NCBI RefSeq assembly: GCF_900156045.1
Contig: NZ_FTMX01000005.1
Coordinates: 186,001 to 250,000 of the forward strand
Origin: Peribacillus simplex
GTDB lineage: Bacteria > Bacillota > Bacilli > Bacillales > DSM-1321
DNA: 64,000 nucleotides
Direction of reading: 5' to 3'
Each line of letters begins with the position of its first letter. Within the stretch, counting starts at the first letter, position 1. The notes beneath the pieces were generated by a model. That model was given only the letters and a program-made list of their open reading frames with translations. It made no database searches and was not told the origin of the DNA. This document shows, one piece after another, positions 20,667-41,609 of this stretch. The position numbers and the translations under genes were made by a program.

Positions 20667-20745
20667 TGTTAATAATCACCATATGAATAGCCTATGGCTG
20701 TAGAAGGAAAAGACTCCTAAAAGGCATTCGTTAGACTAAAGCTAT

Positions 20746-20896
20746 GGCTGTTTTCGCCTACTTTGTTGCTATTTACCAAGTAAAGCGGTGTGGTTGATTT
20801 CCCCTCCAGATGCTCGCTTTCCGCGGGAGTCTCGCACTTGCGCTCCAATCAACCTTAAATCGTTTAGTACTAAAAACAATCTTTACGAAAAGAGCC
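20746..20896. mobile_element. MITE copy 1 (151 bp, internally deleted)
   Basis: Ends GGCTGTTTTCGCC and (reverse) GGCTCTTTTCGTA are terminal inverted repeats. A perfect 8-bp target duplication AAAGCTAT flanks it (20738-20745, 20897-20904). Relative to the 219-bp copies the central G+C-rich hairpin is shortened. The right duplication contains the stop codon of the murE-like gene, so the element inserted exactly at the gene's end. Confidence 0.85.
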
Positions 20897-20900
20897 AAAG

Positions 20901-22382
20901 CTATTGATCAAAATAACCGATAAAATCCCCTTGGTCTTTATTTTGCAGATATAGTACCGTTTCTTTGTCAGAAATGGTAGGCAGTCCGAAATTTTTCTCA
21001 TACCTCTCAATTCCTTTTCCTGTAATGATAATCCAATCCCCTTCCTTTCCTGCTTGTAACGCCTCCTGTATAGCAAGTGTCCGATCTGGAATAACCTTCC
21101 CATTTCCAGCAAAGTAATCGTTTTGGAGTTTATTTAGGGCCGATTCCATCTCCTCTAATCCCTCCGAATTCAGATCATCCATCGTCAAAATCGAAACATC
21201 ACTATGTTCCGATGATACTTTAACCATTTCAGCCCTTTTGGTTGTATCTCGTCCACCTCGGAAACCAAAGATATGATAAATTTTTTTGGCCCCGCATTCT
21301 TTGGCAGTTTGAAGCATATGTTGAATGGCATCTGCAGTGTGTGCATAATCGATGACTATTGTCGGTCCAAATTCTTTCTTATACATTTCAAATCTTCCTG
21401 GCACACCGGAAAATCGTTTCAGTGAAGTGAGGATTTCCTCTTTTGAAATTGGAAACATCTTCGCTACGGAATACGCAGCTGTTGCGTTATATAAATTATG
21501 AAGTCCAGGTAAAGGTAACTCAATTTTCACAAAATCATGATTCTCATTCAATAAAATAAAGGGGTTTATGGCAGCATTATAATTGGTGATGGTTAAATCG
21601 CAGCGATTGGATTTTCCAAATACAAAGGCACTGACACTCTTCTCACGTAAGTATTCTTGTAGTCTTTCTCCCCAGAAATCATCCCCATTGATAATCGCAA
21701 GACCATTTGGTTTCAATTTTTCAAAAAGCAGTAATTTTGCAAGGAAATAATCCTCCATGGTACCGTGGAAGTCGAGATGGTCATGATACAAATTCGTGAA
21801 GACACAGAAATCAAATTCAATTCCTTCTAATCGGTATTGGGCTAATCCATGAGAAGACACTTCCATTATGACAACCATGTCCTGACTGGCTGCCAGCAAG
21901 GAATTCAGTTCCATGGTACCTGGAGTCGTATTATGGGAATCGACTTTGATTCCGTTGATAATATGCTGTATCGTACCAATGACGGAACAGGTAACCCCAT
22001 TCTCTTCTAATATTTGCTGAAGCATATAGCTCGTTGTGGTTTTTCCATTTGTGCCCGTAATTCCTATCATTATTTTTTGATTGCTGGGATCTCCATAAAA
22101 CCTTTTGGCGATTAGCCCTAATGCTTTTCGACTGTTCTCCACTCGTAAATAGGGAACATCCAATCCCTTAATATCGCGATTGCCAATCACAGCCGATGCC
22201 CCTAAACGAATTGCATCTTTAATGTAATTATGGCCATCGGACGTATAACCGGTTACGGCAACAAAAAGGAATCCCTTTTTAATTTCTTTAGAATTATCGG
22301 TTACACCTGTGATGGATATATGTTCAACGTCCTTCGGCAAATTCCCGTTTATTGCTTCTTTCAATATATCTTTAAGGATCAT
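20901..22382 (-). CDS. MurE-like UDP-N-acetylmuramyl peptide ligase (paralogue)
   Basis: 493 aa from the ATG at 22382 behind AAGGAG. Mur-ligase features: GVTDNSKEIKKGFLFVA at the N-terminus, P-loop TGTNGKTTT (109-117), VSSHGL, the HDHLDFHGTMEDYFLAK block with the carbamylated-Lys position (Lys216), VPGRFE and DYAHTAD. MurE adds the third residue to UDP-MurNAc-L-Ala-D-Glu. The DNPR motif that marks diaminopimelate specificity is replaced by DDLN (402-405), so the acceptor is unclear. It is a lone gene, not in a mur operon, hence probably a second copy beside the housekeeping MurE. A MITE abuts its stop codon. Confidence 0.85.
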   Translation of the reverse strand: MILKDILKEAINGNLPKDVEHISITGVTDNSKEIKKGFLFVAVTGYTSDGHNYIKDAIRLGASAVIGNRDIKGLDVPYLRVENSRKALGLIAKRFYGDPSNQKIMIGITGTNGKTTTSYMLQQILEENGVTCSVIGTIQHIINGIKVDSHNTTPGTMELNSLLAASQDMVVIMEVSSHGLAQYRLEGIEFDFCVFTNLYHDHLDFHGTMEDYFLAKLLLFEKLKPNGLAIINGDDFWGERLQEYLREKSVSAFVFGKSNRCDLTITNYNAAINPFILLNENHDFVKIELPLPGLHNLYNATAAYSVAKMFPISKEEILTSLKRFSGVPGRFEMYKKEFGPTIVIDYAHTADAIQHMLQTAKECGAKKIYHIFGFRGGRDTTKRAEMVKVSSEHSDVSILTMDDLNSEGLEEMESALNKLQNDYFAGNGKVIPDRTLAIQEALQAGKEGDWIIITGKGIERYEKNFGLPTISDKETVLYLQNKDQGDFIGYFDQ

Positions 22383-22538
22383 TAACTTTTCTCCTTTTTC
22401 ATGTAAGCTATTCACCTGACTTATGAAAATAAAATTCATAAGTAACAATAAGCCCATTTTTAGTATTTACCAGTACTCTAAAAATAATTGTTAATCCAAA
22501 TTTTGTTAGTTGTAATAAAGGTCAGAAGGAAAAAAGAA

Positions 22539-22568
22539 AGAAAAGCAGCCAAAATTGGCTGCTTTTCT
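22539..22568. terminator. Bidirectional terminator
   Basis: Perfect stem AGAAAAGCAGCCAA / TTGGCTGCTTTTCT downstream of the MFS gene. Confidence 0.8.
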
Positions 22569-22611
22569 TATGGATATAGCTGTATTTAGGTGTTGGCACA
22601 CTGCAAGATAA

Positions 22612-23865
22612 TTACGATTGAATTTCCAGGGGTTTGGTTTCGGCCTTTTGATTGTACAATGGCAAAATGAAAAACATCCCTAGAATAAAAAAGAAAGCGG
22701 CTGTTTCAAATATGGCGACGAGTGAAAATTGCTCTTTCAGTACACCTGCTGCACTCATGGTCAACACCATCGATCCAGTGAATAGCGGGCTTAAAATTCC
22801 ATTGACCCTTCCGATGAACTCGCCTTCGGTCCTCTGTAATATCAATGTATTGATCCCGATTTGAATACAAGGCAGCATTAGCCCATTAAAGAACTCGGCT
22901 GTAAGTGTAATCCAAAGATTTGTTGAAAGCCCCATTACCGCTAATCCAATGGCATTCACAAGCATTCCGAAAGCTAATAATCTTTGAGGTGCCACTTTTT
23001 TAGCAAAAATCATCACACCGGCACCACCTAAAATCATGCCAAACCCATTCACCATAAATAACCATTGCAGATTTTCCTTAGGCAGTTCCAGTTGTTCCGT
23101 AACAAGGAATATAGAGAGCGGCTGAATGAAACCCAGTCCGAGCCCGGCTGCCAGAAAACATAAACCAAGTAAGCTTAGTTCCTTTTTTCGCAACACATAC
23201 CTCACTCCGCTTTTCATTTCCTGCCATATCGTTGTTTTTGCGGTCTCTTCATTCAGTTTACGATCTTTTGGAAGAAAGGCGAGTGCACCAGCTGAAAGTA
23301 AAAACGCCAGGCCAGTAATCGCAATCGATATGTTTATCCCGAATGATTGGAAGGCGAATGTACCGAGAATCGGACCTAAAACCATAAATACTGCAAAGAC
23401 GGTCTGATAAACAGACATCCCTGTCTGAATTTGGCTTTCTGGCAAATGCATCTTAAAAAGCTTCATGCCTGATGGCTGAGAAAACTGAGAAAGTATCGCC
23501 GAAATCAAAGTTGCGAAGAATACCATTTTCCAACTGCCGAAGATAAGCGAGATGAGCACAGCAAATACGGATAGTGCACTTAATATATCACACCAAACCA
23601 TCGTTTTTTTCGGACTCCAGCGGTCAGCAAACGTCCCTCCAATAAATGAAAAAATAAAAATGGGTGCGAATTCCGCTACTGATATCATGGAAATGGCAAA
23701 GGCATCTCCATTTGTCTTTTCCATGACGAATAACAAAACGGCAAAATTCCGTACCCATATCCCTATTTGCAAAAACAAGCCTGATAAGATAATGGCCCGG
23801 AATACTCGATTTGTAAAAATGTTAGGTTCCTTATTAATTAACGTTTCAGATGTGTTATTCGCCAA
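22612..23865 (-). CDS. MFS transporter, drug/siderophore exporter type
   Basis: 417 aa with 12 predicted helices. FIGGTFADRWSPKKTMVWCD is the loop 2-3 MFS motif, and the general pattern (FQPSG-like segment, TEGEFIGRVNGILSPLF) resembles the EntS/Tet(V)-like MFS_3 exporters. The substrate is unknown. The TTG at 23865 is 8 nt behind AGGAGG and gives LANNTSETLINKEPN as the N-terminus. A TTG start 57 nt earlier in the same frame lacks a ribosome binding site. The ribosome binding site itself lies in a hairpin (see 23874-23900), suggesting control of translation. Monocistronic. Confidence 0.85.
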   Translation of the reverse strand: MANNTSETLINKEPNIFTNRVFRAIILSGLFLQIGIWVRNFAVLLFVMEKTNGDAFAISMISVAEFAPIFIFSFIGGTFADRWSPKKTMVWCDILSALSVFAVLISLIFGSWKMVFFATLISAILSQFSQPSGMKLFKMHLPESQIQTGMSVYQTVFAVFMVLGPILGTFAFQSFGINISIAITGLAFLLSAGALAFLPKDRKLNEETAKTTIWQEMKSGVRYVLRKKELSLLGLCFLAAGLGLGFIQPLSIFLVTEQLELPKENLQWLFMVNGFGMILGGAGVMIFAKKVAPQRLLAFGMLVNAIGLAVMGLSTNLWITLTAEFFNGLMLPCIQIGINTLILQRTEGEFIGRVNGILSPLFTGSMVLTMSAAGVLKEQFSLVAIFETAAFFFILGMFFILPLYNQKAETKPLEIQS

Positions 23866-23873
23866 TATAAAAA

Positions 23874-23900
23874 CCTCCTGTGAAATATCTGGACAGGAGG
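23874..23900 (-). promoter_or_regulatory. Hairpin sequestering the MFS ribosome binding site
   Basis: CCTCCTGT (23900-23893) pairs perfectly with ACAGGAGG (23881-23874) across an 11-nt loop in the mRNA leader. The 3' arm contains the whole AGGAGG of the exporter gene. It could gate translation as in drug-induced attenuation. Confidence 0.6.
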
Positions 23901-24172
23901 CAGTACAATACAAATTCAACAAGGAAAAATATCCCTAATCTAAGGAACACAATGATCTTTGTTTGTATTTTAATGTACAGACTAATCCTATCCAGAAAAA
24001 AAGTTCGTTTTAAGCACGCATTTTTTCTTAAAAAATAGGATTAAATGATCATTGTTTAAAGGTCACCCTTCCATTTTATGTTATTTTCATAATAATTTAT
24101 TTAATCTGATAAATCAAGGGCAAATTAATAAAACTTTTTTTTGATGGGTTTGTTCTATTTTCTTGTATAAAA

Positions 24173-24201
24173 AAAGGACTTCCTTTAAAAGAAAGTCCTT
24201 T
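24173..24201 (-). terminator. Terminator of the mscS-family gene
   Basis: AAAGGACTTTC / GGAAGTCCTTT stem followed by seven Ts on the minus strand, ~117 bp after the stop. The rest of 23923-24317 shows no gene. Confidence 0.7.
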
Positions 24202-24317
24202 AATATCCTTAAGCTTCAAAGGACTTTCACTAGTAAAGCTTCTGCCCTTTGTTACCTTATCCATCATTTTTTCATGACCTTTTCCTGGATTATCTCAAGC
24301 TAATGTGTTTCTTCTTT

Positions 24318-25199
24318 TCAGTTCTCCAATAAACGTTCTTGATTAGGATTGCCCTGAACAAACAAATGGGAAGATGGCATTAGAATTTGATTCTCATGTA
24401 AAGCAGTCATCATTTCAAACCTCACGCTTCTCGATGTTTCAAAGTAATCATCAGGTTTCACAAGTCCCACTATACATAGTTCATATCCAACATATTTAAG
24501 ATTCGGATTTAAATCCGTAATGCCAATGTACCTAAAATCCTCTTCAGGTGTATCATCTTCTAGTCTTAGAAGGCTTTCACCATACTTCTCATTACAGATA
24601 ATACATATATTCTCCAACAGCCGTTTTACCCTTTCGGGATTTTCTTGATAACTTACTGTGATGCGTTCAATGATTCGCATTCTTCCTTTATTAAAATTTT
24701 GAATCGTCCTGATTTCACTGTGTGGGATGGTCAGCAATTTTCCTGACCATTCCCTGATCTGCATGAACCGGATACCGATTTCCTCAATCGTCCCGGAACT
24801 TGTCCCATTAAAGGTCACAAAATTCCCTACCCGGAATTCGTTATCTGAAAGCCTTACGAATCCCAATAAGATATCCTTAAGCATTTGCTGAGCCGCAAAT
24901 CCGATCACGACCCCTACAATCCCAGCTCCAGCCATGATTCCTTTTATGTCTATAAACTGGCCAATCAGATAAATGAGGAAAAGTCCTGCAAGGCCGTACC
25001 TTAGAGCAGAACGAGTAACCCCCTGTATCGTTCTTTCGACTTCTTCCACAAAAAAATCAGATCTCTTAAAGAACCATTCAACCATTTTATTCAAAATATA
25101 ATAAACGGCCAATAACAGTAAAGCTAATATAAAAAGCCTCAATACTAAAAATTCTTCCAAATAATCCATAGCCTGTTCTGTAAATTTCAAGACATTCAT
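24318..25199 (-). CDS. MscS-family mechanosensitive channel
   Basis: 293 aa. Helices at ~15-35 and ~65-85, then the pore helix with the Ala/Gly pattern (IMAGAGIVGVVIGFAAQQML, KDILLGFVRLSDNEFRVGNF) and a beta domain (GTIEEIGIRFMQIREWSGKL, TIPHSEIRTIQNFNKG). These are hallmarks of YkuT/MscS-type small-conductance channels that release osmolytes on hypo-osmotic shock. The ATG follows TGGAGGTGG. It lies 21 bp downstream of the Spo0M-like gene on the same strand, so they are probably co-transcribed. Confidence 0.92.
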   Translation of the reverse strand: MNVLKFTEQAMDYLEEFLVLRLFILALLLLAVYYILNKMVEWFFKRSDFFVEEVERTIQGVTRSALRYGLAGLFLIYLIGQFIDIKGIMAGAGIVGVVIGFAAQQMLKDILLGFVRLSDNEFRVGNFVTFNGTSSGTIEEIGIRFMQIREWSGKLLTIPHSEIRTIQNFNKGRMRIIERITVSYQENPERVKRLLENICIICNEKYGESLLRLEDDTPEEDFRYIGITDLNPNLKYVGYELCIVGLVKPDDYFETSRSVRFEMMTALHENQILMPSSHLFVQGNPNQERLLEN

Positions 25200-25220
25200 G
25201 TTTCCACCTCCATTTCCACT

Positions 25221-25613
25221 TTATTCAGAATCGATTAAAATCCAGTCATCATCCTTGCCTATTATCCCTTTATCAAGGATAAGTCTCGTTTTAAGGCGAT
25301 AGGAAACCCCCCGCTTATAAGGCTCCTTTAATATAGGCAGACAAAAGTTAAAAGGAATTTCATTGCTTTCCCCTGAATTAATCTCTCTTGAAGACAAAAT
25401 GGTGCTCGTTTTAAGGATTTCTTCCATTCCCGTAGAATGAGTATCCATGATCAAATCACATTCAATCCTTCTTATTCTTTGCGCAAGGGTACCACCCTTA
25501 ATCAAGAAATATCCATTTATGCATTCACCAGATTTATACGTATTTTTCGGAAGGATTAAATCTATTTGTGCAGAACCTATCCCTAAAAGTAACAAAGATT
25601 TTCTAAGTATCAA
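25221..25613 (-). CDS. Spo0M-like (sporulation-control, arrestin-fold) protein
   Basis: About 130 aa from the TTG at 25613, 8-9 nt behind TGGAG. It starts LRKSLLLLGIGSAQIDLILP and continues GECINGYFLIKGGTLAQRIR RIECDL, SREINSGESNEIPFNFCLPI; these match the N-terminal half of Spo0M/SpoOM family proteins. Full family members are ~255 aa with two arrestin-like sandwiches; this one is a short, single-domain form. Spo0M controls early sporulation and interacts with the envelope or cytoskeleton in B. subtilis; the role of the short form is unknown. Confidence 0.8.
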   Translation of the reverse strand: MILRKSLLLLGIGSAQIDLILPKNTYKSGECINGYFLIKGGTLAQRIRRIECDLIMDTHSTGMEEILKTSTILSSREINSGESNEIPFNFCLPILKEPYKRGVSYRLKTRLILDKGIIGKDDDWILIDSE

Positions 25614-25703
25614 AGAATACACTCCATTTATATTTATTTGTTTTTCTATTAAACCCACATGTTTATACATTTCCTTAAGGGCTGCATGATCCGGACTACA
25701 AAA

Positions 25704-25870
25704 AAACCTTTACCATTTTGGTAAAGGTTTTCTAAAAATAAATAGACCTTTACCAATAGGTAAGGTCTGGCTAACAACAATATGCTGCCAACAACACCGA
25801 GAGCAAAGAGCTCCGTAATGACGACATTGTTGTAAAAGCTACTCCCCTTTGGAGAATGTATTAAAGTATA
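25704..25870 (-). ncRNA. Candidate small transcript with twin hairpins
   Basis: A strong minus-strand promoter lies at 25877-25906 (TTGACA, 18 bp, TATTAT). The predicted RNA carries AAAGGGGAG, a short hydrophobic reading frame without a clear start (ITELFALGVVGSILLLARPY), and two stem-loops. The last stem, AAACCTTTACCA/TGGTAAAGGTTT (25704-25730), is followed by T-rich sequence; the first is AGACCTTACC/GGTAAAGGTCT (25744-25768). It could be a regulatory RNA or a small membrane-toxin message. No known family recognised. Confidence 0.4.
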
Positions 25871-25876
25871 TAATTT

Positions 25877-25906
25877 ATAATACGGTAGGATTAGAAAGTT
25901 TGTCAA
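25877..25906 (-). promoter_or_regulatory. Consensus-like promoter of the orphan small transcript
   Basis: TTGACA (25906-25901), 18-bp spacer, TATTAT (25882-25877) on the minus strand. Confidence 0.65.
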
Positions 25907-26268
25907 ACCTTTATATTTTATTATTTTCAAGCTCTTCCCGGAAAATTCGGGTTCTTTGTACATATCTTGATATTAATGAAAAATATAATGAATTAACTTG
26001 TCCCTTTATTGCAAAAGTATTAAATGCTGGGTTTTAAATAGACCAGTTGGTGGAATAAGTATGTAACAGCCAAGTCCTTACAAATGGATGAACGCTCCTT
26101 TCAAAAAGAATAAAGTGAACAAACTATGTATATATAAAATTTTATTTAAAAATTATCAAAATTTCTCTTTTACTTACGCCAATCATGTTGTAATATAAAT
26201 GTAACAATTGTAATATTAATTAAACTTTCGTTACATAAGTATCCTATTAGGGATTGGGGAGATAAAAT

Positions 26269-26802
26269 ATGAAAAAATTTTCAAGTATGCTATTATCCAT
26301 TATCATTTTATTTTTCACATTAAGCGGTCAGGTTACCGCAAAAACGACATCACAGAATTTGTCTGACGCAAATGCATTAAAGATAGCCGATAATGCCAGC
26401 AAACATTTTTGGAATGCTTTACATGGGTACAAAACCCGTTCATGTTCACAAAAAACTTTCAATTATAAAGGGACAGCGTATTCATACCTTTGCCAAGAGT
26501 TTAATACAAAAGATAAATTGACTTCCTACTTAGCAGAGACATTTACTAATAATGCTGTTGAAAAAGGGCTGAACAAATATAGTTACATTACCCATAAAGG
26601 GAAATTAGCCCGTCCAATCGGAGACGGCGACAGCATGTTAGAGTGGAGAAAAGCAAAAATTAAACTGGTCTATCAAAAAACTAACGTTAGATCCTACAAT
26701 TTAACTGTACCTACTGTCGACGGTGACTCAGTAAAAAGAACAGTTACCTTTTATAAGTCCGGATCCACTTGGAAAGTTAATCAGTTCGATGCAGTTCAAT
26801 AA
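26269..26802 (+). CDS. IseA-family inhibitor of DL-endopeptidases
   Basis: 177 aa with a signal peptide (residues ~1-24, cleavage after VTA). Conserved IseA (YoeB) features: ASKHFWNALHGYKTRSCSQK, FNYKGTAYSYLCQEFNTKDK, THKGKLARPIGDGDSMLEWR, RTVTFYKSGSTWKVNQF; the paired cysteines (SCS, LCQE) are present. IseA is secreted to the cell wall and inhibits LytE/LytF-type endopeptidases, moderating autolysis. ATG behind GGGGAG. Single gene with its own terminator. In B. subtilis the gene responds to envelope-stress two-component control; no such site was identified here. Confidence 0.9.
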   Translation: MKKFSSMLLSIIILFFTLSGQVTAKTTSQNLSDANALKIADNASKHFWNALHGYKTRSCSQKTFNYKGTAYSYLCQEFNTKDKLTSYLAETFTNNAVEKGLNKYSYITHKGKLARPIGDGDSMLEWRKAKIKLVYQKTNVRSYNLTVPTVDGDSVKRTVTFYKSGSTWKVNQFDAVQ

Positions 26803-26818
26803 TAAAATGGTTTAAATG

Positions 26819-26877
26819 TAACGCCTCATGTGCTGTATAGTTAGTTAAAAACTATATTTCATATGAGGTGTTTTTCT
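26819..26877 (+). terminator. Terminator of the iseA-like gene
   Basis: ACGCCTCAT / ATGAGGTGT arms with a long loop that itself contains TAGTTAGTT/AAAAACTA, then TTTTT. Confidence 0.65.
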
Positions 26878-26979
26878 GTTTTCCGTTGAAATTCGAGAAA
26901 TAATCTTACAGACTTGTAACAGCTCACTTTTCACTTCAGGGAACTTTTAATCAAAAAAAACACAGCTAGATGCTGTGCC

Positions 26980-27969
26980 TTAACGGATTTTTGCCTTACG
27001 GAAGCCTTGATAGGAATCGTAGGCGGCAAAAAAGATGGAGATGAGTATGAGCCCCCAGTAAATCGAGGTTTTCCATTCATCGATTGAAAATAGTGTTTTT
27101 TGGTAGGCAATGAATTCAGGGTTCAATAAATCAGGATTACTGATGATGATGATGAAAGTCAGAGTGGATAACAGCTGGTATATGGCATGAATTAAGGCTA
27201 GTTTCAGGGTCCATCGTCTTAAAAATAATTTATAAATCGCCAAGAGCACCCCGATGATGACGACGCATGATACCAGCAGCCAATAGGAATTCAATACTTC
27301 TTGATTGAAAGAAGGTGTCACGAAAATGAGACTGCCATTTCTTTTTTCATAGACTCCTAAGAGGTTTGCTGCATTGAAATAAAGGGCCGCGAAGACAGAA
27401 AGACCTAACAAACTCGCAAAAATTTCGATCATAGGAACCGCTTTTTTCTTTGAAATGTTCGGAATATCTTTTAGGTTTTCCGGTGTCCATGGTTTCAAGT
27501 CTTTTGTTAAAGGCGACTGGTCTTTTGAAGTATCCACGCGTTCTAAAATGGCAAATGAAATCGTTAACCAGAAAAACACTTGGATACCTGTACTGATCAT
27601 ACCCGAAATCCCTTTCCCGATTATTATCAAAATTGCGTCAACAACCGTATTACCCATATCCCGAAAAGGATTATCCCCTACTAATCCGATTAGTGAAATG
27701 ACTGCAGCGATTGGTAAAATCATTTTCAACAGACAGATATAAACATCAAAATAACGCGGTCCAATCAGATGCATCGGCCGATCGCGATAACGACTTGCAA
27801 GTGTAACCGGATCTCCTAATTTTAAAAGGACGGCTTTCACGTCTTGCTCCGTATGATCCACCGGAAGCATATCTTCGATTGTAGATTGAAGTTCAAGCGC
27901 AATATCCTCCCGGCTTTTTTCTGGCAGCCTGCGGGTCACTTCCTGAATATAAAGTTCAATCAGCTCCAT
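26980..27969 (-). CDS. HAAS-domain membrane protein, partner of PadR
   Basis: 329 aa. Residues ~1-65 (MELIELYIQEVTRRLPEKSR EDIALELQSTIEDML ... LGDPVTLASRYRDRP) form the HAAS helical domain typical of proteins encoded next to PadR regulators. About six membrane helices follow (e.g. LLKMILPIAAVISLIGLVGD, SYWLLVSCVVIIGVLLAIYK). Its start overlaps the padR gene by 14 bp, so translation is coupled. HAAS proteins are thought to act in membrane-associated signalling with PadR; the signal is unknown. Confidence 0.85.
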   Translation of the reverse strand: MELIELYIQEVTRRLPEKSREDIALELQSTIEDMLPVDHTEQDVKAVLLKLGDPVTLASRYRDRPMHLIGPRYFDVYICLLKMILPIAAVISLIGLVGDNPFRDMGNTVVDAILIIIGKGISGMISTGIQVFFWLTISFAILERVDTSKDQSPLTKDLKPWTPENLKDIPNISKKKAVPMIEIFASLLGLSVFAALYFNAANLLGVYEKRNGSLIFVTPSFNQEVLNSYWLLVSCVVIIGVLLAIYKLFLRRWTLKLALIHAIYQLLSTLTFIIIISNPDLLNPEFIAYQKTLFSIDEWKTSIYWGLILISIFFAAYDSYQGFRKAKIR

Positions 27970-28303
27970 CTTCTCCCTCTCCTTTTAATAATATATAAAG
28001 CTCTTGAGAAGTTTTTTCCCATTCTTCCTTTAACTGAGTGAATATTTCTCCCCCATAATCGCTTAAAGCATAGTACTTGCGCGGTCTACTTTCAGAAGTA
28101 TCCCAGCTGCTGGTGACCAATTCTTGTTTTTCCAGGCGGCGAAGCAAAGGATATAAAGTACTTTGATCAATGGTAATTCCCGACTTCTCTAAACGCTGGA
28201 CAAGCGAGTACCCATACTGAGGGGTTTTGAGCTGACTTAGAACAGCTAACGTCAAAGTGCCTCTGCGCAGCTCAGTGGTTAATGAATTCAGTAAATTGCT
28301 CAT
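27956..28303 (-). CDS. PadR-family transcriptional regulator
   Basis: 115 aa. LRRGTLTLAVLSQLKTPQYG YSLVQRLEKSG, STLYPLLRRLEKQELVTSSW and SRPRKYYALSDYG are the defining PadR winged-helix motifs. No extended C-terminal domain, so it belongs to the short PadR-s2 type. It is first in a two-gene unit with the HAAS protein. ATG behind GAGGTGATT. Repeated sites upstream suggest autorepression. Confidence 0.92.
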   Translation of the reverse strand: MSNLLNSLTTELRRGTLTLAVLSQLKTPQYGYSLVQRLEKSGITIDQSTLYPLLRRLEKQELVTSSWDTSESRPRKYYALSDYGGEIFTQLKEEWEKTSQELYILLKGEGEDGAD

Positions 28304-28319
28304 CCAATCACCTCTTCTC

Positions 28320-32805: not shown

Positions 32806-32822
32806 GTAGAAGCAGGATGAGA

Positions 32823-33843: not shown

Positions 33844-34280
33844 TCCTTATTTTCATTATGTATACCTATGCTATTGGGGATTGTATGTTTTGTTCGTCAG
33901 TAATTAAATAAATTAGGATAAGTACCTGTCTTAAAACAACTACAATGAATTTTGATAAATGGTGTTAAAGATAGGAATTCAAGGAACATTTGATAAGTAA
34001 ATCGAGTTAATTTACTATACTCATTCACCTTCACCACTTTTCAATTCTTTGAACCAATCTGCCCCGATAGTTGCATAAAGAAAAAGCTGCCTTAAAGACA
34101 GCTCCAAATTACAGAATTTTATAAAATGCCCACCGTTAACTAAATAGGAATTCTCATAAACCTTGAGGACTAATCTCTTAGGCTAATCATTTATTTCGAA
34201 CCCCTTCAAAAAGTATCCAATCGTTTCAAGTCCTTCTTCTATTTAGTTCCCTTTCTTTAATCTTTAAGCTCTTTTAGAAA

Positions 34281-34499
34281 GGCTGTTTTCGCATACTTTA
34301 TTGCTATTTACCAAGTAAAGCGGTGTGGTTGATTTCCCCTCCAGATGCTCGCTTTCCGCGGGGCGGGCGGTGAGCCTCCTCGCCGTAAACGCCTGTGGGG
34401 TCTCACCTGTCCCGCTGCTCCCGCAGGAGTCTCGCACTTGCGCTCCAATCAACCTTAAATCGTTTCGTTTTAAAAACAACAATCTTTACGAAAAGAGCC
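34281..34499. mobile_element. MITE copy 2 (219 bp, full length)
   Basis: Terminal inverted repeats GGCTGTTTTCGCATACTTT... and (reverse) GGCTCTTTTCGTAAAGATTG. Perfect 8-bp target duplication TTTAGAAA at 34273-34280 and 34500-34507. The centre is a G+C-rich palindromic block (TCGCTTTCCGCGGGGCGGGC ... CCCGCAGGAGTCTCGC). It carries no protein-coding capacity. Inserted just past the glycerate kinase stop. Confidence 0.9.
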
Positions 34500-34511
34500 T
34501 TTAGAAAACAA

Positions 34512-35660
34512 TTAATTACCTCTATTTTTAATCGCTCCCAAAAAAGTCCGCATTACTTGTTCGGCTGAAGCTTCCAACAATTCAGCTCCTCTTTCCATAG
34601 CTTCCTTTAACGGCATAGGGGCGCTCACTAAACTATGAACACTAGTTACTCCATGTTGATATAAAACTTCAATACCGGTTCCGATCGATCCAGCTAAAAC
34701 AAATACTGGAATACCGTGCTTTTTGGCTTCTTGTGCAACTCCCATTGGTGTTTTGCCCGAAGCTGTCTGGTAATCGATTTGGCCCTCACCGGTAAAGACA
34801 CAATCAGCATCGGGCAATCTTTCACCCATTTTCGTATGCTCCAATACAATATCGATCCCCCTTTTTGTTTCTGCTGGGAAAAAGGCTTGAAATGCACCTC
34901 CCATTCCACCTGCAGCACCCGCACCCGCTTTATCATGCAAGTGTATGCCTGTCTTCATTTCCACTAAATCCGCCCATGATGATAATGCTTTATCAAGCAA
35001 TTCAGCCATGGCAGGAGTGGCACCTTTTTGAGGTCCGAAAACACTTGATGCCCCATTTGGACCGACTAACGGATTCTGGACATCCGAGGCAATCATAAAC
35101 TCGGAATCTGCAATTCTGGAATCAAGATCTTCGGTATTAATTTCTGATATCCGTGATAATTCGGCACCCCCGAATCCCAGCGGTTTACCATCTTCATCAA
35201 ACACCCGCATCCCCAAAGCCTGGAGCATCCCAACACCCGCATCATTGGTAGCGCTTCCGCCCACCGCTAAAATGAACTTTCGACAGCCATCATTCAATGC
35301 CTTTTGAATAAGCTCCCCTGTTCCGTATGTAGTAGTGATCAATGGGTTCAACTTATCTGGATCGACTAGGCACAGTCCGGATGCACTGGCCATTTCAATC
35401 ACGCATGTTTCCTGATCACCCAAGATTCCATATGCTGCCTGAACGTCTTCAAGTAAAGGTCCTTTAACAGTCACTTCAACTTTTCGACCATTCGTAGCTG
35501 CCACAAGGCTATCCATCGTACCTTCCCCGCCATCCGCTACAGGAACCAATTCTGTCCTCGCATCCGGCAGTGCCTTCCTGATCCCTCGCTCGATTGCTTT
35601 GGAAGCTTCTAATGCTGACAGACTTCCCTTATAGGAATCTGGCGCAATAACAATTTTCAT
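34512..35660 (-). CDS. Glycerate kinase
   Basis: 382 aa from the ATG at 35660 behind AAAGGGGGC. Family motifs: KIVIAPDSYKGSLSALEASK, VPVADGGEGTMDSLVAATNG, FILAVGGSATNDAGVGMLQA LG, SDVQNPLVGPNGAS, AGAAGGMGGAF and CVFTGEGQIDYQTASGKTP. It phosphorylates glycerate (2-phosphoglycerate in GarK/GlxK-type enzymes). A broken regulator gene of the CdaR type, usually partner to such kinases in sugar-acid catabolism, lies divergently at 35900-36683, so the local regulation has been lost. Confidence 0.92.
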   Translation of the reverse strand: MKIVIAPDSYKGSLSALEASKAIERGIRKALPDARTELVPVADGGEGTMDSLVAATNGRKVEVTVKGPLLEDVQAAYGILGDQETCVIEMASASGLCLVDPDKLNPLITTTYGTGELIQKALNDGCRKFILAVGGSATNDAGVGMLQALGMRVFDEDGKPLGFGGAELSRISEINTEDLDSRIADSEFMIASDVQNPLVGPNGASSVFGPQKGATPAMAELLDKALSSWADLVEMKTGIHLHDKAGAGAAGGMGGAFQAFFPAETKRGIDIVLEHTKMGERLPDADCVFTGEGQIDYQTASGKTPMGVAQEAKKHGIPVFVLAGSIGTGIEVLYQHGVTSVHSLVSAPMPLKEAMERGAELLEASAEQVMRTFLGAIKNRGN

Positions 35661-35899
35661 GCTCATGCCCCCTTTGAAAATATTTTTAATAATCTTCGGA
35701 AATATTTTAATCACCGTTCATTCTATACGAAAATTAGTATGGAGTGCTGTTTGTTTTTTGGGGGCTATTATATAGAAAAATGATCTAAAGTCAGTATTCT
35801 GTTTATTTTCCCACCTCCTTAAGTAAAAGAGTGCAAAAGGCTTAAACTATAGACCATCCCCTATTTCATTATAAGTCATCGCTTGTTTGCATGGGGGTG

Positions 35900-36683
35900 A
35901 TGGAAATCAAATTAAATACGTTAAATAAAAGTGAGCTGGTCAACACACCCTTGTTGGGTTCCTGATCGGGTTTCATTCTCACTACTGCACTTGCTGAAAA
36001 TGATATCGACCAAAGACTGGATACAGTCATCAAACAATTAGGCTATTTTCGTAAAGATTGTTGTTTTTAAAACGAAACGATTTAAGGTTGATTGGAGCGC
36101 AAGTGCGAGACTCCTGCGGGAGCAGCGGGACAGGTGAGACCCCACAGGCGTTTACGCCGAGAAGGCTCACCGCCCGCCCCGCGGAAAGCGAGCATCTGGA
36201 GGGGAAATCAACCACACCGCATTACTTGTTAAATCGCAACAAAGTATGTGAAAACAGCCAACAATTAAAAGCAAAAAGCTTTGTTATTCGAATCGGTTTG
36301 GGCTCAATTGTGGAAAAGGTATCATACAAATGCCACTTTTTCCGGGAAGCTGAATCAGCACTTTTACTAGATGAAGCCAATCAAGCTTTAATATACTGAT
36401 GTGGAAACAAAAGCACTCTTGTAAAGGATAGATGAGCGGGCGAAACGGCAAATTCAGGAAAGAATACTAGGCTGCTTATCTGAAAAGTTGATCAAGACAC
36501 TGCAACAATTTTTCCTTAGTAACTTAAAGGGTTTATGCAAAAAGAATATATATCCATCGTAATGCCCTTATATACCGATTAAATAAAATCAAGGTAATTA
36601 CCGGGTAAAATCCACAAGAGCTGCATGATGACATAACTTTGCAGTTAGCCAGTCGGGTAAGACAATCGAAAAGGAGAAATTGA
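35900..36683 (+). pseudogene. CdaR/PucR-type sugar-diacid regulator, broken by a MITE and frameshifts
   Basis: Removing the MITE (36041-36259) and one target copy restores one frame: DIDQRLDTVIKQL joins KAKSFVIRIGLGSIVEK, then CHFFREAESALLLDEAN, as in the GGDEF-like central part of CdaR. After further frameshifts come RQIQERILGCLSEKLIKTLQ and, in another frame, YIHRNALIYRLNKIKVITG, the PucR/CdaR helix-turn-helix signature. An internal TGA lies near 35962 and the sensory N-terminus is missing. Divergent from glycerate kinase, a classic CdaR neighbourhood. Confidence 0.8.
36041..36259. mobile_element. MITE copy 3 (219 bp, full length, opposite orientation)
   Basis: Same element as 34281-34499 but inverted. 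Perfect 8-bp target duplication AACAATTA at 36033-36040 and 36260-36267. It interrupts the cdaR relic. ORFs within it are an artefact of its palindromic sequence. Confidence 0.92.
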
Positions 36684-36827
36684 AGATATTTTTAAAACAA
36701 GACGGTCTATTTAAATTAACTCATTCTATCCCTATTAAATCCTTGCTTTGGAAATCTGTATAATTGATCGAATTACCGAGTAGATTAACAATACATGATT
36801 TTTTTTGCATATCAGGAGGGATTTTGA

Positions 36828-38435
36828 ATGAGTGGCATCGCAAATATTTTAATTATCCTTGGATTTACCGTTATTTTCATCGTTATCATCGTCTTGGTTT
36901 TCCTATTACTTTATATGGTTTTCTTTGACCGCACGCAGAAGCACCATGCAATTTTAAGAAATTACCCCGTGCTCGGGAGAATACGTTACTTTCTGGAAAA
37001 AATCGGGCCTGAAATGAGGCAATATTGGTTTAACAGTGATAACGAAGGAAAACCCTTTTCCCGGGATGACTATGAACATATGGTGAAAAGTTCAAAATAT
37101 TTACGGGATGTAATAGGTTTTGGTTCAAAACGGGATTTTGATGAAGAAGGCTTCTTTGTTAAGAATAGCATGTTCCCCAAATTGGCCGAAGAAGAAAAGT
37201 ACGATCGAGAAACAAAAGTGACGACTAAAAGATACATTCTAGTGAAAGACCCGCTTTTCTCACAACGAGAAGAAAAATGGGGTGATGAAGTGTCCTCTGC
37301 ATTCTTATTGGATGATGAAGATGCCGTGATCATCGGCCCAAACACTAAGCATCCCTTTCGAGTAAAAGGTCTTATCGGCATGTCAGCCATGAGTTATGGT
37401 TCTTTGGGGAAGAACGCAATCACTGCCCTTTCTGAGGGATTGGCTGCAGCAAAAGGCACATGGATGAATACAGGGGAAGGCGGACTTTCTCCTTATCATT
37501 TAACCGGCGGTGTCGATATAATCATGCAAATCGGGCCGGCCATGTTTGGGGTTCGTGATAGCAAGGGCGAAATGGATTGGGATGAATTAAAAAGAAAAAG
37601 TGAAATACCAGAAATCAAAGCATTTGAAGTCAAATTGGCTCAAGGTGCCAAAACTCGCGGAGGGCATATCGATGCTGAAAAAGTGAATCCGGAAATTGCT
37701 GAAATCCGTAAGGTCGTTCCGTACAAAGCGATCGATAGTCCAAATCGGTTTCATCAATTCAATGACGTAAAATCCATGTGCGATTTTATTGAAAGAATCA
37801 GGGAACAAACAGGCATCCCGGTCGGCATCAAAATGGTGATCGGCGGCAATGACAGTGTCGAAGAGCTTGCTAGCTATATGAAAGAAACCGGGAAAGGTCC
37901 GGATTTCATTTCATTGGATGGCGGTGAAGGCGGCACGGGTGCTTCTTATCAGGAATTGATCGATAGCGTAGGATTGCCGCTAAAATCCGCGTTGCCGATC
38001 TTAGTATCGACACTGGAAAAATACGGCGTCCGAGATCGGGTTAAAATCATCGCCTCCGGTAAATTGTTCACGCCTGATAGAATCGCCATTGCCCTAGCCA
38101 TGGGGGCCGACCTTGTTAACATAGCGCGTGGTTTCATGATTGCGATAGGATGTATCCAGACGATGAAATGTCAATCCAACGCTTGTCCTGTCGGGGTAGC
38201 AACCACTGATCCGGAACTGCAAAAGGCACTTGTCATCGATGAAAAGAAATTCCGTGTGGTCAATTTTCTTGTTACCCTTAGAAAAGGATTATACCGAATC
38301 TCAGCCGCTGCTGGTTTGGATTCACCTATCCATTTTCAACCTAAGCACATTAGCTATAAGGATGATAAAGGAATTGTCATATCCCTTGAAGATATCATGA
38401 AAGAAGTAAAGGGACATATAGGTGCCAGACAATGA
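36828..38435 (+). CDS. FMN-binding glutamate synthase family protein
   Basis: 535 aa. One N-terminal membrane helix (residues ~7-33). The rest is the GltB FMN barrel: GLIGMSAMSYGSLGKNAITA, NTGEGGLSPYHLTGG, EVKLAQGAKTRGGHIDAEKV, VGIKMVIGGNDSVEELA, ISLDGGEGGTGASYQELIDS, ALAMGADLVNIARGFMIAIG and the cysteine stretch CQSNACPVGVATTDPEL. It lacks the glutaminase domain of glutamate synthase. This is the YerD type; the physiological substrate is not known. ATG behind CAGGAGGG, strong terminator behind. Monocistronic. Confidence 0.9.
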   Translation: MSGIANILIILGFTVIFIVIIVLVFLLLYMVFFDRTQKHHAILRNYPVLGRIRYFLEKIGPEMRQYWFNSDNEGKPFSRDDYEHMVKSSKYLRDVIGFGSKRDFDEEGFFVKNSMFPKLAEEEKYDRETKVTTKRYILVKDPLFSQREEKWGDEVSSAFLLDDEDAVIIGPNTKHPFRVKGLIGMSAMSYGSLGKNAITALSEGLAAAKGTWMNTGEGGLSPYHLTGGVDIIMQIGPAMFGVRDSKGEMDWDELKRKSEIPEIKAFEVKLAQGAKTRGGHIDAEKVNPEIAEIRKVVPYKAIDSPNRFHQFNDVKSMCDFIERIREQTGIPVGIKMVIGGNDSVEELASYMKETGKGPDFISLDGGEGGTGASYQELIDSVGLPLKSALPILVSTLEKYGVRDRVKIIASGKLFTPDRIAIALAMGADLVNIARGFMIAIGCIQTMKCQSNACPVGVATTDPELQKALVIDEKKFRVVNFLVTLRKGLYRISAAAGLDSPIHFQPKHISYKDDKGIVISLEDIMKEVKGHIGARQ

Positions 38436-38469
38436 AAAACCACCGCCCTCGTTTATGGGCGGTGGTTTT
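38436..38469 (+). terminator. Terminator of the glutamate-synthase-like gene
   Basis: AAAACCACCGCCC / GGGCGGTGGTTTT stem right after the stop codon. Confidence 0.88.
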
Positions 38470-38514
38470 CACTTTATCAATAAGTGAAGTCATTTTAGGC
38501 TGCTCCAAAATGTA

Positions 38515-39741
38515 TCAGGCATGTAAACGAATATCCCCTGTCTGCTCTTTTCCTTTACCCATCAGCTTTCCATAGCGATAATAAACATAAACTGCAGCTA
38601 TAAATCCAGTTACAGACAGGAATGCATCAAATATGAAGATGATTGATATATTCCCGCTTTTCGACATCCAACCCGTTACAAGCGGCATGACTATAGAAGC
38701 CAATCCAGCAGCTGTTGCTACGATCCCTGTCACTGTTCCTTTTTTTCTCCAGAAAAATTCCGTCATTATCGTAATGGCTAATTGAAAGATACCCGCAGTG
38801 GAAAGTCCGATGAAAAATGCGGTAATGGAAACGATGATCGGTACCTTAACCAAAAGGATCGTAAGGATTGAAATTAAAGTTATGATCGGATAAACCATGA
38901 TAACCGTTATTGGCCGGACGATCTTTTTTAATAAAATGGATAAAACCAATACAGAAATAAGCGCCCCTAAACTATAATAACTCAGTAATTTGATGGAACT
39001 GGCCATCGTCATACCCACAGCTTGCTGCCCATAAGTCGGAAGCCATATCTGTGAAACGGTGAATAATCCTGTTGATGTGAAACCGATTATCACGAGGGCA
39101 AGTCCCTCTTTACGTAATACCGGTTCTGAAATGAATTTCATTCTACCGGTACGATCGTCCATATGTTTTTCCTTATACATATTCGTACCAGGAAAAGAAA
39201 CGGTAAATAAAAAAATCAAATTCAATAGATAAATGGCAGCAGGAATAAAAAAGGCATATCCATAAAACATCTCATGATTCGAGAAAAACAATATCATGAA
39301 CGGAAGAAGAAATGCTCCAGCAGACATGAATGCTTTCACCAGTACACTTGCAGAACCGGCGGCTCTTGGGAAAAGCTCTGTTAAACCTGGATAAGATCCT
39401 GCATCCATTGACGAATTAGCGACACCTGCAAGGATAGCAAAAACAAAAGCCATATGATAATTTGGTGATAATGGAATACCGATCAAGAAAATACCCATTC
39501 CCAATGATGAAGCAATAATTAATGGTTTTCGCCCGATTTTATCTGATAAATATCCTGTAAATGCATATGTAAGTAATTTCCCCACCCCTATAGCTGCGAT
39601 GATATAACTTACCCCGGCATTATCTGTATCCCATTGCTCCGTTAAATACGACATATTCGATGCGAGCATGATATTGACCATACCTAACAGGAAATAATTA
39701 ATATATACTCCTGATGCTGTTTTCATATACGTGTTCTTCAT
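38515..39741 (-). CDS. MFS transporter of unknown substrate
   Basis: 408 aa, 12 predicted helices. TGYLSDKIGRKPLIIASSLG is the loop 2-3 MFS motif; LAGVANSSMDAGSYPGLTEL F and FFWRKKGTVTGIVATAAGLA are further conserved parts. It resembles sugar-acid or aromatic-acid MFS permeases, but no substrate can be named. ATG behind GGGAG. It is convergent with the glutamate-synthase-like gene and upstream of the MBL gene in the opposite reading order, so there is no operon partner. Confidence 0.85.
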   Translation of the reverse strand: MKNTYMKTASGVYINYFLLGMVNIMLASNMSYLTEQWDTDNAGVSYIIAAIGVGKLLTYAFTGYLSDKIGRKPLIIASSLGMGIFLIGIPLSPNYHMAFVFAILAGVANSSMDAGSYPGLTELFPRAAGSASVLVKAFMSAGAFLLPFMILFFSNHEMFYGYAFFIPAAIYLLNLIFLFTVSFPGTNMYKEKHMDDRTGRMKFISEPVLRKEGLALVIIGFTSTGLFTVSQIWLPTYGQQAVGMTMASSIKLLSYYSLGALISVLVLSILLKKIVRPITVIMVYPIITLISILTILLVKVPIIVSITAFFIGLSTAGIFQLAITIMTEFFWRKKGTVTGIVATAAGLASIVMPLVTGWMSKSGNISIIFIFDAFLSVTGFIAAVYVYYRYGKLMGKGKEQTGDIRLHA

Positions 39742-39908
39742 CTCAAAACTCCCAACCTGTCTTCAGTAAACGTTCTCCGCCGATTCAATATTCATAAGAA
39801 TCTAAAAATAATCATAACATTTTTTCCTTTTAAGTAAACAAAGCCGTTAAACTTATTCATTAACTAGTATATTTAAGACAGTGTGACTTGCGTTTTGAAT
39901 GTAAAAAA

Positions 39909-39926
39909 AGCTCATATACATGAGCT
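39909..39926 (-). terminator. Terminator overlapping the MBL gene stop
   Basis: AGCTCAT / ATGAGCT stem followed by seven Ts on the minus strand. Confidence 0.65.
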
Positions 39927-40883
39927 AGAATCAATGTTCAATATATCAATGGATTGATAATACCATTTGCCATCACGTTTAAACTTTCTGCATTGGTCGT
40001 TCAAAAGAAGGTATTCAAGGTGAGCCAATGTTTCACCAACAGCAAACCTGGTTTCGTGAATGGGCAGATTTCCAAATAAGATATGGCAAGCCCTTTTTAC
40101 AGAAATCGGCTCTTTCATGTTTTCATGAATCACATGCAGCCTGTCCTGATGGTGGTCCAACAATTCAACAATTCTTTTATTGGCATTTTGAAACGGTTTC
40201 CCATGTGAAGGGATGACATATTCAACGTCCAGCTTTTGTATTTTTTTCAAAGAAGTAAAAAACTCTTCCAATGGGTTGCAGAAACCTTTAAACCAATACG
40301 AAATATTTGGAGATACCCTGGGCAATATATGATCTGTAGAGAAAAGGACACTTTTTTCCTTATTGTATAATGATATCAGGCCATCAGAGTGCCCCGGCGT
40401 GAAAATTACTTCATACTCATATTTGCCAAAATGCAGATTCATACCTTCTTCAAGATGATGGTTTACGGTAGGATAGGGTTTTACTTGGGGCATGAATCCA
40501 CTTTCGTCACTGGATAAGGCGACGGCTACCTCGTTTTCCATACCACATGCCTTATAATTTTCTTTAAGCAGGTTCAGCGAATCCGTTTCCCAATACGTAG
40601 TTCCCGCATGTTCATCCACTTGTGTCATCCAAACATCCGCCCCGGTTAATTGTTGTAATGCCCCGGCATATCCGAAATGGTCTGGGTGATAATGGGTGAT
40701 GATAATATCGGTAATATCGTGTTTTTCGATAATTGGGTTCCATAGATCCTTTGTCGTTTTGTTATTTAATCCCGTATCAATGATTGTCCACCCTTTTTTA
40801 CCTTCTGCTAGGAAACAATGGACATGATCCAACCTAAAAGGCATTGGAATGGTAACTTGAGTAACTTTCAATTCATTCAGCAA
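39912..40883 (-). CDS. MBL-fold metallo-hydrolase
   Basis: 323 aa. The metal-binding motif is THYHPDHFGYAG (HxHxDH), followed by TPGHSDGLISLY, STDHILPRVSPNISYW and IPSHGKPFQNANKRI, giving all histidine ligands of a glyoxalase II/lactonase-like enzyme. The C-terminal domain (HVIHENMKEPISVKRACHIL, AVGETLAHLEYLL) is the helical extension common in YqgX/YtnP-like and MBL thioesterase proteins. Substrate unknown. TTG start behind AAGGGGAAG. Single gene; the terminator overlaps the stop. Confidence 0.88.
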   Translation of the reverse strand: MLNELKVTQVTIPMPFRLDHVHCFLAEGKKGWTIIDTGLNNKTTKDLWNPIIEKHDITDIIITHYHPDHFGYAGALQQLTGADVWMTQVDEHAGTTYWETDSLNLLKENYKACGMENEVAVALSSDESGFMPQVKPYPTVNHHLEEGMNLHFGKYEYEVIFTPGHSDGLISLYNKEKSVLFSTDHILPRVSPNISYWFKGFCNPLEEFFTSLKKIQKLDVEYVIPSHGKPFQNANKRIVELLDHHQDRLHVIHENMKEPISVKRACHILFGNLPIHETRFAVGETLAHLEYLLLNDQCRKFKRDGKWYYQSIDILNIDSSSCI

Positions 40884-41066
40884 CTATAACTTCCCCTTCC
40901 GATGTAACTTTAATTACATGAACAAAAAACAAAACATTTAAGTTTATTAAATAAAGGTTATCATTAATCAATTCGACGAAATCTTTCAAGTTCCTTTAAT
41001 CGATATCAAGAGCCATTCGGTTAAAATAGAGAACCCATGGCCTAGGGCATTGTTAACTCAAGAAAT

Positions 41067-41100
41067 AAAAAACTGCCATTAAAATTAATGGCAGTTTTTT
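41067..41100. terminator. Isolated terminator hairpin
   Basis: AAAAAACTGCCATT / AATGGCAGTTTTTT stem with no gene immediately upstream on either strand; may belong to a lost gene. Confidence 0.7.
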
Positions 41101-41127
41101 TGTGGGTGTAAAAATATGACCGTTTAT

Positions 41128-41184
41128 TTACACTACAGGCACTCGCTTTCCGAGTGAGTCTGCCCGTTCCAATCAACTTCGTTT
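41128..41184. repeat. Decayed relic of the MITE core
   Basis: ACTCGCTTTCCGAGTGAGTC ... CCAATCAACTTCGTTTTA reproduces parts of the MITE centre and right arm with most of the element missing. The younger copy 4 lies just behind it. Confidence 0.5.
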
Positions 41185-41192
41185 TAACAATA

Positions 41193-41365
41193 GGCTGTTT
41201 TCGCATACTTTGTTGCTATTTACCAAGTAAAGCGGTGTGGTTGATTTCCCCTCCAGATGCTCGCTTTCCGCGGGGCGGGCGGTGAGCATCTGGAGTCTCG
41301 CACTTCAGCTCCAATCAACCTTAAATCGTTTCGTTTTAAAAACAACAATCTTTACGAAAAGAGCC
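41193..41365. mobile_element. MITE copy 4 (173 bp, internally deleted)
   Basis: Ends GGCTGTTTTCGCATACTTT and (reverse) GGCTCTTTTCGTAAAGATTG. Perfect 8-bp target duplication TAACAATA at 41185-41192 and 41366-41373. The central hairpin is shortened relative to the 219-bp copies. The bases 41374-41608 beyond it hold no supported gene. Confidence 0.9.
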
Positions 41366-41609
41366 TAACAATAAGAAAGAACGCAAAAAATTTTTAATAA
41401 TTGTATCTAAATGTATAGGCACAAATAAACTCGACTTGAAAGGATTACTATAGATCAACCGGTGCCATCGAACCATTTGGTTGTAAACTGGAGACGGCCT
41501 TTGTTTTATCTTACATGTATGACTTGGTGGAAGATATGTATTCAGAGGTAGGACACCCAGGTATGATCCATTTATATTCTCTATTACTGCTTCAAATCCC
41601 AAAAAAACC

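What the first reader, a model, noticed from the sequence alone, without database searches (positions are those of the whole stretch)
20738..41373. Undescribed-looking MITE family with ISL3-like ends and perfect 8-bp target duplications
Four copies: 20746-20896, 34281-34499, 36041-36259, 41193-41365. Each begins GGCT[G/A]TTTTCG, ends with the reverse of GGCTCTTTTCG, and each has a different perfect 8-bp direct repeat (AAAGCTAT, TTTAGAAA, AACAATTA, TAACAATA). Ends of the GGCTCTT type with 8-bp duplications are characteristic of ISL3-family insertion sequences, so an ISL3 transposase probably moves them. Two copies are 219 bp; two are internally deleted within the central hairpin. The related G+C-rich core is a widely seen intergenic repeat in bacilli whose mobility is usually not recognised.
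Basis: partly seen in the sequence, partly recalled or inferred. Interest (0 to 1): 0.75.

Follow-up and report, generated by a model that had tools for sequence, protein, structure and literature searches.

The report
MITE family moved by IS1595-type transposases
A bacillus carries many copies of a 219-base "hitch-hiker" transposon that inserts with 8-base target copies; its ends match IS1595-type insertion sequences, not the ISL3 type first proposed, and its middle is a GC-rich hairpin also found inside an unrelated transposon type.

Summary
The four copies, their coordinates and their perfect 8-bp target duplications are real. The family is a true MITE. In this genome 36 of 47 sampled copies have a perfect 8-bp duplication and none a 9-bp one; re-paired flanks give about 1. 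Related genomes show empty sites. The ISL3 attribution fails: no ISL3 match in this genome, and intact ISL3 elements of one genus member differ at 12-15 of 23 end positions. The ends match IS1595-family elements: 36 of 69 scanned loci are complete elements with GGCT[G/C]TTTTCG-type ends and perfect 8-bp AT-rich duplications of the same signature; 32 of their 36 left and 33 of 36 right ends lie within 3 of 23 bases of a MITE end. The only IS1595 trace found in this genome is a decayed copy bearing such an end. The G+C-rich core was not found in those IS1595 elements. It is a separate hairpin module, also found in IS1182 elements, possibly recruited more than once (p 0.08). Two window copies differ by core deletions from the copies at the same sites in a same-species genome. 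Verdict: a new MITE family of a known kind, with a chimeric core of some interest.

The parts
20738..20745 (.). left 8-bp target duplication AAAGCTAT of copy 1
20746..20896 (+). MITE copy 1, 151 bp, core internally deleted; the copy at the same site in same-species genome G020 is 216 bp
20897..20904 (.). right 8-bp target duplication of copy 1; contains the stop codon of the Mur-ligase gene 20901-22457 (-)
34273..34280 (.). left 8-bp target duplication TTTAGAAA of copy 2
   Evidence: single copy at the empty site in G020 and G001
34281..34326 (+). left arm of copy 2: its outer 25-30 bp are an IS1595-type left end, the rest is specific to the MITE
34327..34454 (+). G+C-rich hairpin core (GGTTGATT...AATCAACC); module shared with IS1182 elements and stand-alone repeats
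34455..34499 (+). right arm of copy 2; its terminal 30 bp are 29/30 identical to the right end of an IS1595 element in Bacillus sp. SG-1 (L181)
34500..34507 (.). right 8-bp target duplication of copy 2
36033..36040 (.). left 8-bp target duplication AACAATTA of copy 3
36041..36259 (-). MITE copy 3, 219 bp, reverse orientation; present in G020, empty site in G001
36260..36267 (.). right 8-bp target duplication of copy 3
41185..41192 (.). left 8-bp target duplication TAACAATA of copy 4
41193..41365 (+). MITE copy 4, 173 bp, core partly deleted; the G020 copy at the same site has a different deletion (181 bp)
41366..41373 (.). right 8-bp target duplication of copy 4

Best explanation
These are copies of a non-autonomous transposon (MITE) of the IS1595 family, in a bacterium whose genus includes Peribacillus huizhouensis. 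An IS1595 transposase made elsewhere (by an IS copy in another strain, or a transient or now decayed copy) recognises the 23-30 bp ends GGCTGTTTTCGCATACTTTGTTGC... and GGCTCTTTTCGTAAAGATTGTTG..., and inserts the 219-bp element at AT-rich targets, duplicating 8 bp. Between the ends lies a G+C-rich hairpin module that also occurs inside IS1182-family elements and on its own. Shown: the ends, the duplications, the target signature, insertions present in one genome and absent in another, and different core deletions at the same site in two strains. Inferred: that an IS1595 transposase acts in trans, and that the hairpin was captured rather than inherited from the IS.
For: Ends: 36 of 69 IS1595 loci scanned (69 of 77 fetched, themselves the best 80 of 202 confirmed matches) have both ends within 3 of 11 bases of GGCT[G/C]TTTTCG and a perfect 8-bp duplication; two of the 36 (L174, L175) are one insertion in two Niallia records, so 35 are independent. 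Over 23 bp, 32 of 36 left ends and 33 of 36 right ends are within 3 mismatches of a MITE end, three right ends with none. Over 30 bp the right arm matches L181 at 29, the left arm L174/L175 at 27. MITE left and right ends correspond best to IS left and right ends. Targets: 93% AT in MITE copies against 66% in flanks, 94% AT in IS1595 elements; in both sets only A or T at positions 1, 2, 7 and 8, T favoured at 1 and A at 8. In this genome the only IS1595-type match is one decayed gene at C11:350.3-351.1 kb; its left border is GGCTGTTTTCGTATAGATTGTTG, 3 of 23 from the MITE left end; one open piece scores 76.8 bits for NF033547, cut-off 75. Mobility: of 13 elements in 400 kb of this genome, 3 sites are empty in G020, 6 filled, 4 not mapped; of 10 in G020, 3 are empty here, 6 filled, 1 other. 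Copy 2 is absent, with a single TTTAGAAA, in both G020 and G001, so it most likely inserted in this lineage. Published: IS1595 members usually make 8-bp duplications and the related Merlin elements end in GG (PMC8101967, passages); an IS1595-family transposon duplicated an AT-rich 8-bp target in the laboratory (PMC7835479, passages).
Against: No intact cognate transposase was found in this genome or in G020, so the current source of activity is unknown; the own assembly has 31 contigs and could lack a multicopy IS. The exact parent was not found: beyond about 30 bp no IS1595 element seen resembles the MITE. 33 of 69 loci did not pass the end-plus-duplication filter (contig ends, decay, other ends), and the filter chose the best-scoring pair per locus, duplication included. 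Pfam finds no family in the open piece of the decayed gene, which also has a weak, far sub-threshold match to an ISL3 model (20.5 bits, cut-off 180). The genus's two intact transposase frames (G001) lack matching duplications: one has a single recognisable end, the other both ends with unlike flanks. 11 of 47 MITE copies lack a perfect duplication, and 2 of the 6 empty sites have imperfect duplications. Trans-activation was not tested.
Confidence: 0.93

Rival explanations
1. The MITE is moved by an ISL3-family transposase.
For: ISL3 elements also begin with GG and make 8-bp duplications, mostly AT-rich: 10 of 10 G012 copies. 11 of 36 genus genomes have ISL3 matches, including G010 and G033, which hold divergent MITE relatives.
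Against: No ISL3 match in this genome, in G020, or in eight relatives with MITE copies about 95% or more identical. G012 ISL3 ends differ from the MITE at 12-15 of 23 positions without gaps, against 2-3 for two common IS1595 left ends and 3 or fewer for most of the 36 elements.
Confidence: 0.03
2. A static palindromic intergenic repeat (REP/BOX-like RNA or DNA structure) whose copies only look mobile.
For: The core is a hairpin with compensated pairs (8 pairs changed on both sides against 3.1 in shuffles) and occurs widely without these ends.
Against: Exact 8-bp duplications in 36 of 47 copies, and empty sites.
Confidence: 0.02
3. The core itself is the mobile unit and the IS1595 ends are flanks carried along.
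For: The core has its own 8-bp inverted borders GGTTGATT/AATCAACC and occurs in other contexts.
Against: Duplications and empty-site boundaries sit at the IS1595 ends, not at the core borders.
Confidence: 0.03

Closest known systems
IS1595 family insertion sequences (ISXO2-like; NF033547, PF12762), the clade of the G001 transposase (L145)
   Same: 23-30 bp ends, left/right polarity, 8-bp AT-rich duplications with the same signature
   Different: The MITE is 219 bp, has no transposase, and has a G+C-rich hairpin core that none of the 36 complete IS1595 elements matches at E 0.05; those elements are 1370-2289 bp
Bacterial MITEs in general, e.g. MITEPye1 of Paracoccus yeei (PMC11578231, passages)
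   Same: short, inverted ends, target duplications, mostly intergenic, folds into a stem-loop, assumed by its authors to be moved in trans
   Different: MITEPye1 is assigned by its authors to IS1182 and has 1-3 copies per chromosome; this one has IS1595 ends and very roughly 90 copies by pattern count
G+C-rich core repeat in IS1182 elements and other contexts of Bacillaceae
   Same: the window's core is 80-85% identical to six IS1182-context cores and 79% to a Priestia core, same hairpin
   Different: there it lies upstream of the IS1182 transposase or, in two Priestia plasmids, away from any annotated transposase

Membership tests
MITE (non-autonomous DNA transposon) | short, no transposase, terminal inverted repeats | tested here: met
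   219 bp; imperfect inverted ends, 36 nt at 72% counting the duplication
MITE (non-autonomous DNA transposon) | target duplications and presence/absence polymorphism | tested here: met
   36 of 47 perfect 8-bp; 3 of 13 own elements have empty sites in G020 (4 not mapped), 3 of 10 G020 elements have empty sites here; copies 2 and 3 have empty sites in G001
IS1595-derived | ends match autonomous IS1595 elements | tested here: met
IS1595-derived | 8-bp AT-rich duplication with the same target signature | tested here: met
   literature passages PMC8101967, PMC7835479
IS1595-derived | intact cognate transposase in the same genome | tested here: not met
   only a decayed copy with internal stops; G020 has one 150-bp match at E 6e-4. 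Usual for MITEs, not required of them, but it leaves the source open
IS1595-derived | mobilised in trans by an IS1595 transposase | not testable with these tools
   needs a transposition assay
ISL3-derived | ISL3 transposase in the genome or in close relatives with the MITE | tested here: not met
ISL3-derived | ends match ISL3 elements | tested here: not met
   12-15 of 23 ungapped mismatches against the G012 ISL3 ends, the only ISL3 ends delimited here
Known Rfam RNA family (core) | match to a curated family | tested here: not met
   one match at gathering in the window, 6S RNA, outside the MITEs; best in the MITE is E 0.81, below its gathering score

The most novel reading that the evidence does not exclude
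The G+C-rich hairpin is an independent module that unrelated transposons of Bacillaceae (IS1182 elements and IS1595 MITEs) have picked up repeatedly, perhaps because it benefits them (for example by shielding the element from transcription or replication, or by helping it spread), so that one short structured DNA is passed among several transposon types.
Probability: 0.35. Interest if true: 0.6.

Novelty: new member of a known kind. Interest (0 to 1): 0.4.

Why it matters
It assigns an abundant, recently active bacillus repeat to its transposase family by ends, target signature and empty sites, and corrects a plausible but wrong ISL3 label. It also gives a short structured module shared by two unrelated transposon types, and an orphan MITE that is polymorphic within a species although neither genome examined shows an intact cognate transposase, which makes the questions of source and of core function directly testable.

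Tried and rejected
ISL3 partner: PF01610 searched in the own genome and in 36 genus genomes (own included); ISL3 ends determined from 10 G012 copies; rejected. Core inside the autonomous IS1595 elements: no match at E 0.05, in 34 elements and in all 36. Rfam identity of the core: none. Promoter or terminator around copy 2: none by consensus scan. RNAalifold on the core alignment gave an unfavourable covariation term (+0.21) and 1 of 22 predicted pairs changed on both sides, whereas a structure that I named from the single-sequence fold gave 8 of 18 pairs changed on both sides against 3.1 in shuffles; since that structure was read from one of these sequences, this is moderate evidence only. Two separate captures of the core: G010/G011 MITE cores group with IS1182-context cores (98/98), but an AU test does not reject a single clade (p 0.08); L310 was dropped before that tree, leaving 23 of 24 rows. 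Phage collection: no match. Literature for a prior description: (search listings), with passages found in PMC3852290, PMC8101967, PMC7835479 and PMC11578231 and a term search of PMC10969869 that found none of IS1595, Bacillus, ISL3, IS1182; no description of this MITE or of an IS1595 MITE in bacilli was seen. ISfinder could not be searched, and the founding paper of the IS1595 family was not read.
Full report
Observation. Copies 2 and 3 are 219 bp and 96% identical; copies 1 and 4 are shorter versions.

Family size and duplications. A BLAST search of the own genome (G000, 6.08 Mb, 31 contigs) scored 40 of 208 candidates and listed 41 matches, 40 of them nearly or fully full length at 97-100%. 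The pattern GGCTNTTTTCG occurs 101 + 100 times against 11 + 12 for the reversed control, which suggests very roughly 90 copies with two exact ends; 28 of these 201 ends lie in 400 kb of the window's contig, so that stretch is rich in copies. Among the 30 copies fetched by BLAST 22 have a perfect 8-bp duplication. In a sample of 47 distinct copies (13 from 400 kb of contig C29, the rest from 35 of the 60 loci; not the whole genome) 36 are perfect at 8 bp, none at 9; of the other 11, three differ at one base and eight at two to seven. Re-pairing flanks among copies gives 1.0 perfect on average, at most 5. The perfect targets are 93% A+T against 66% in nearby flanks, with only A or T at positions 1, 2, 7 and 8.

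Movement. The same-species genome G020 (one contig) was compared over 400 kb. Of 13 elements here, 3 sites are empty in G020, 6 are filled and 4 could not be mapped to the stretch fetched. Of 10 in G020, 3 are empty here, 6 filled and 1 unclear. Of the six empty sites four show an exact 8-base overlap of the flanks and two a 7-base overlap, the latter at copies with imperfect duplications. Copy 2 of the window is absent in both G020 and the more distant G001, each with a single TTTAGAAA, so it most likely inserted in this lineage. Copy 3 is present in G020 and absent in G001 with a single AACAATTA. Copy 4 is present in G020 and absent in G001, where the target itself is not cleanly readable. 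For copy 1 only G020 could be read on both sides. Copy 1 is 216 bp in G020 and 151 bp here, and copy 4 is 181 bp there and 173 bp here with a different missing segment: parts of the hairpin have been lost in place, for copy 4 differently in the two strains.

Which transposase. ISL3 was tested first and fails. There is no PF01610 match in G000. Among 36 genus genomes 11 have one, but not G020 or the eight relatives with MITE copies of about 95% identity or more; G010, G022 and G033, with divergent or partial relatives of the MITE, do have short or broken ISL3 matches. The intact ISL3 elements of G012 have 8-bp duplications in 10 of 10 copies but different ends. Looking at lone ends in this genome led to C11:350185, where GGCTGTTTTCGTATAGATTGTTG borders a gene fragment whose longest open piece scores 76.8 bits for the IS1595 family (NF033547, cut-off 75, E 2e-21); it also has weak sub-threshold matches, one to an ISL3 model (20.5 bits, cut-off 180), and no Pfam match. 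The gene has internal stops, and its right end was not identified. G001, of the same genus, has two 345-residue open frames without stops; the protein scores 201 bits for NF033547 and 53.7 for PF12762, cut-offs 75 and 27. A scan of the collection of 84,980 species genomes gave 202 confirmed matches, of which the best 80, 77 loci, were kept. Of the 69 that I scanned for ends, 36 are complete elements (1370-2289 bp) with both ends within 3 of 11 bases of GGCT[G/C]TTTTCG and a perfect 8-bp duplication, none with 9; two of these are one insertion in two Niallia records. Their targets are 94% A+T with the same position signature. The pair chosen per locus was the best scoring, duplication included, so the count is not blind. 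The other 33 include loci cut by contig ends, decayed copies and elements with other ends. Over 23 bp, 32 of 36 left and 33 of 36 right ends lie within 3 mismatches of a MITE end. The MITE's terminal 30 bp match L181 at 26 (left) and 29 (right), L174/L175 at 27 and 26, and MITE left and right correspond best to IS left and right. Six distinct sister IS1595 elements of the genus, whose transposases are 38-43% identical where listed, have other ends, such as GGCTATGTTAAAG and GGCTCTGTTAAAG, again with 8-bp duplications; of the 15 loci tried 6 gave no ends, and three pairs are the same element. So the end match is specific to one clade of transposases.

The core. Bases 34327-34454 form a hairpin with 8-bp inverted borders. 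This module matches none of the 36 complete IS1595 elements. It is found in plasmids or genomes of Peribacillus, Priestia, Bacillus badius, Cytobacillus, Paenibacillus, Niallia, Metabacillus and others. In two plasmids of one Peribacillus strain it lies just upstream of an annotated IS1182 transposase, and the homology of the two copies starts some 80 bases before the core, at a hairpin that I take for the left end of the element, and runs at 98% through core and the part of the gene fetched. An alignment of 24 cores supports a conserved hairpin (8 of 18 pairs with changes on both sides against 3.1 in shuffles, and 1 to 6 when the partner strand is slid), with the reservation that the structure was read from one of the sequences and that RNAalifold's own consensus showed only 1 of 22. 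MITEs of G010 and G011, with the same IS1595 ends and perfect 8-bp duplications, hold cores closer to Peribacillus IS1182-context cores (83-84% and 79-80%) than to the window's core (72% and 71%). A tree groups them accordingly (98/98), but a single origin of MITE cores is not rejected (p 0.08). So the module is shared by two transposon types; repeated recruitment by IS1595 MITEs is only suggested.

Setting. The genus includes Peribacillus huizhouensis: contig C1 of G010 has the length of its record (715,094 bp) and the same match. The own species was not identified. Copy 1 lies between the 6S RNA gene and a Mur-ligase gene, its duplication spanning that gene's stop codon; copy 2 ends 12 bp beyond the end of a glycerate kinase gene.

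How it most likely works. An IS1595 transposase supplied in trans cuts at the GG ends and joins them to an AT-rich target with an 8-base stagger. Since neither this genome nor G020 shows an intact cognate gene, while 3 of 9 (own) and 3 of 10 (G020) comparable sites differ between them, the enzyme is probably present only at times or in some strains. This last step is inference.

Novelty. In the papers searched I saw no IS1595 MITE in bacilli and no description of this one, but ISfinder and most subscription papers were out of reach. It is a new member of a known kind.

Noticed in passing
window 1414-1477 and 1639-1702: Tandem remnants resembling the G+C-rich core, without IS1595 ends; further fragments at 1895-1927, 4324-4356 and 4525-4568.
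   Followed up: no
window 41150-41192: Copy 4 is inserted directly beside what looks like the end of another core (CCAATCAAC), with IS1182-like upstream sequence on its other side in G020 and G001.
   Followed up: partly
L148 (G016) 868-2670; L166, L169, L173, L174, L180: IS1595-type elements carry a second open frame besides the transposase, by eye acetyltransferase-, metallophosphatase-, DinB- or HAD-like (recalled resemblance, not scanned).
   Followed up: partly
window 20446-20632 (-): 6S RNA gene (Rfam RF00013, 80.6 bits), about 113 bp from MITE copy 1.
   Followed up: no
L263, L311 (plasmids of B. subtilis and P. frigoritolerans): A core variant preceded by GGCTCTGTTAAACTTGTCTGTTG, resembling the ends of the sister IS1595 clade; possibly another MITE type with the same module.
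   Followed up: no
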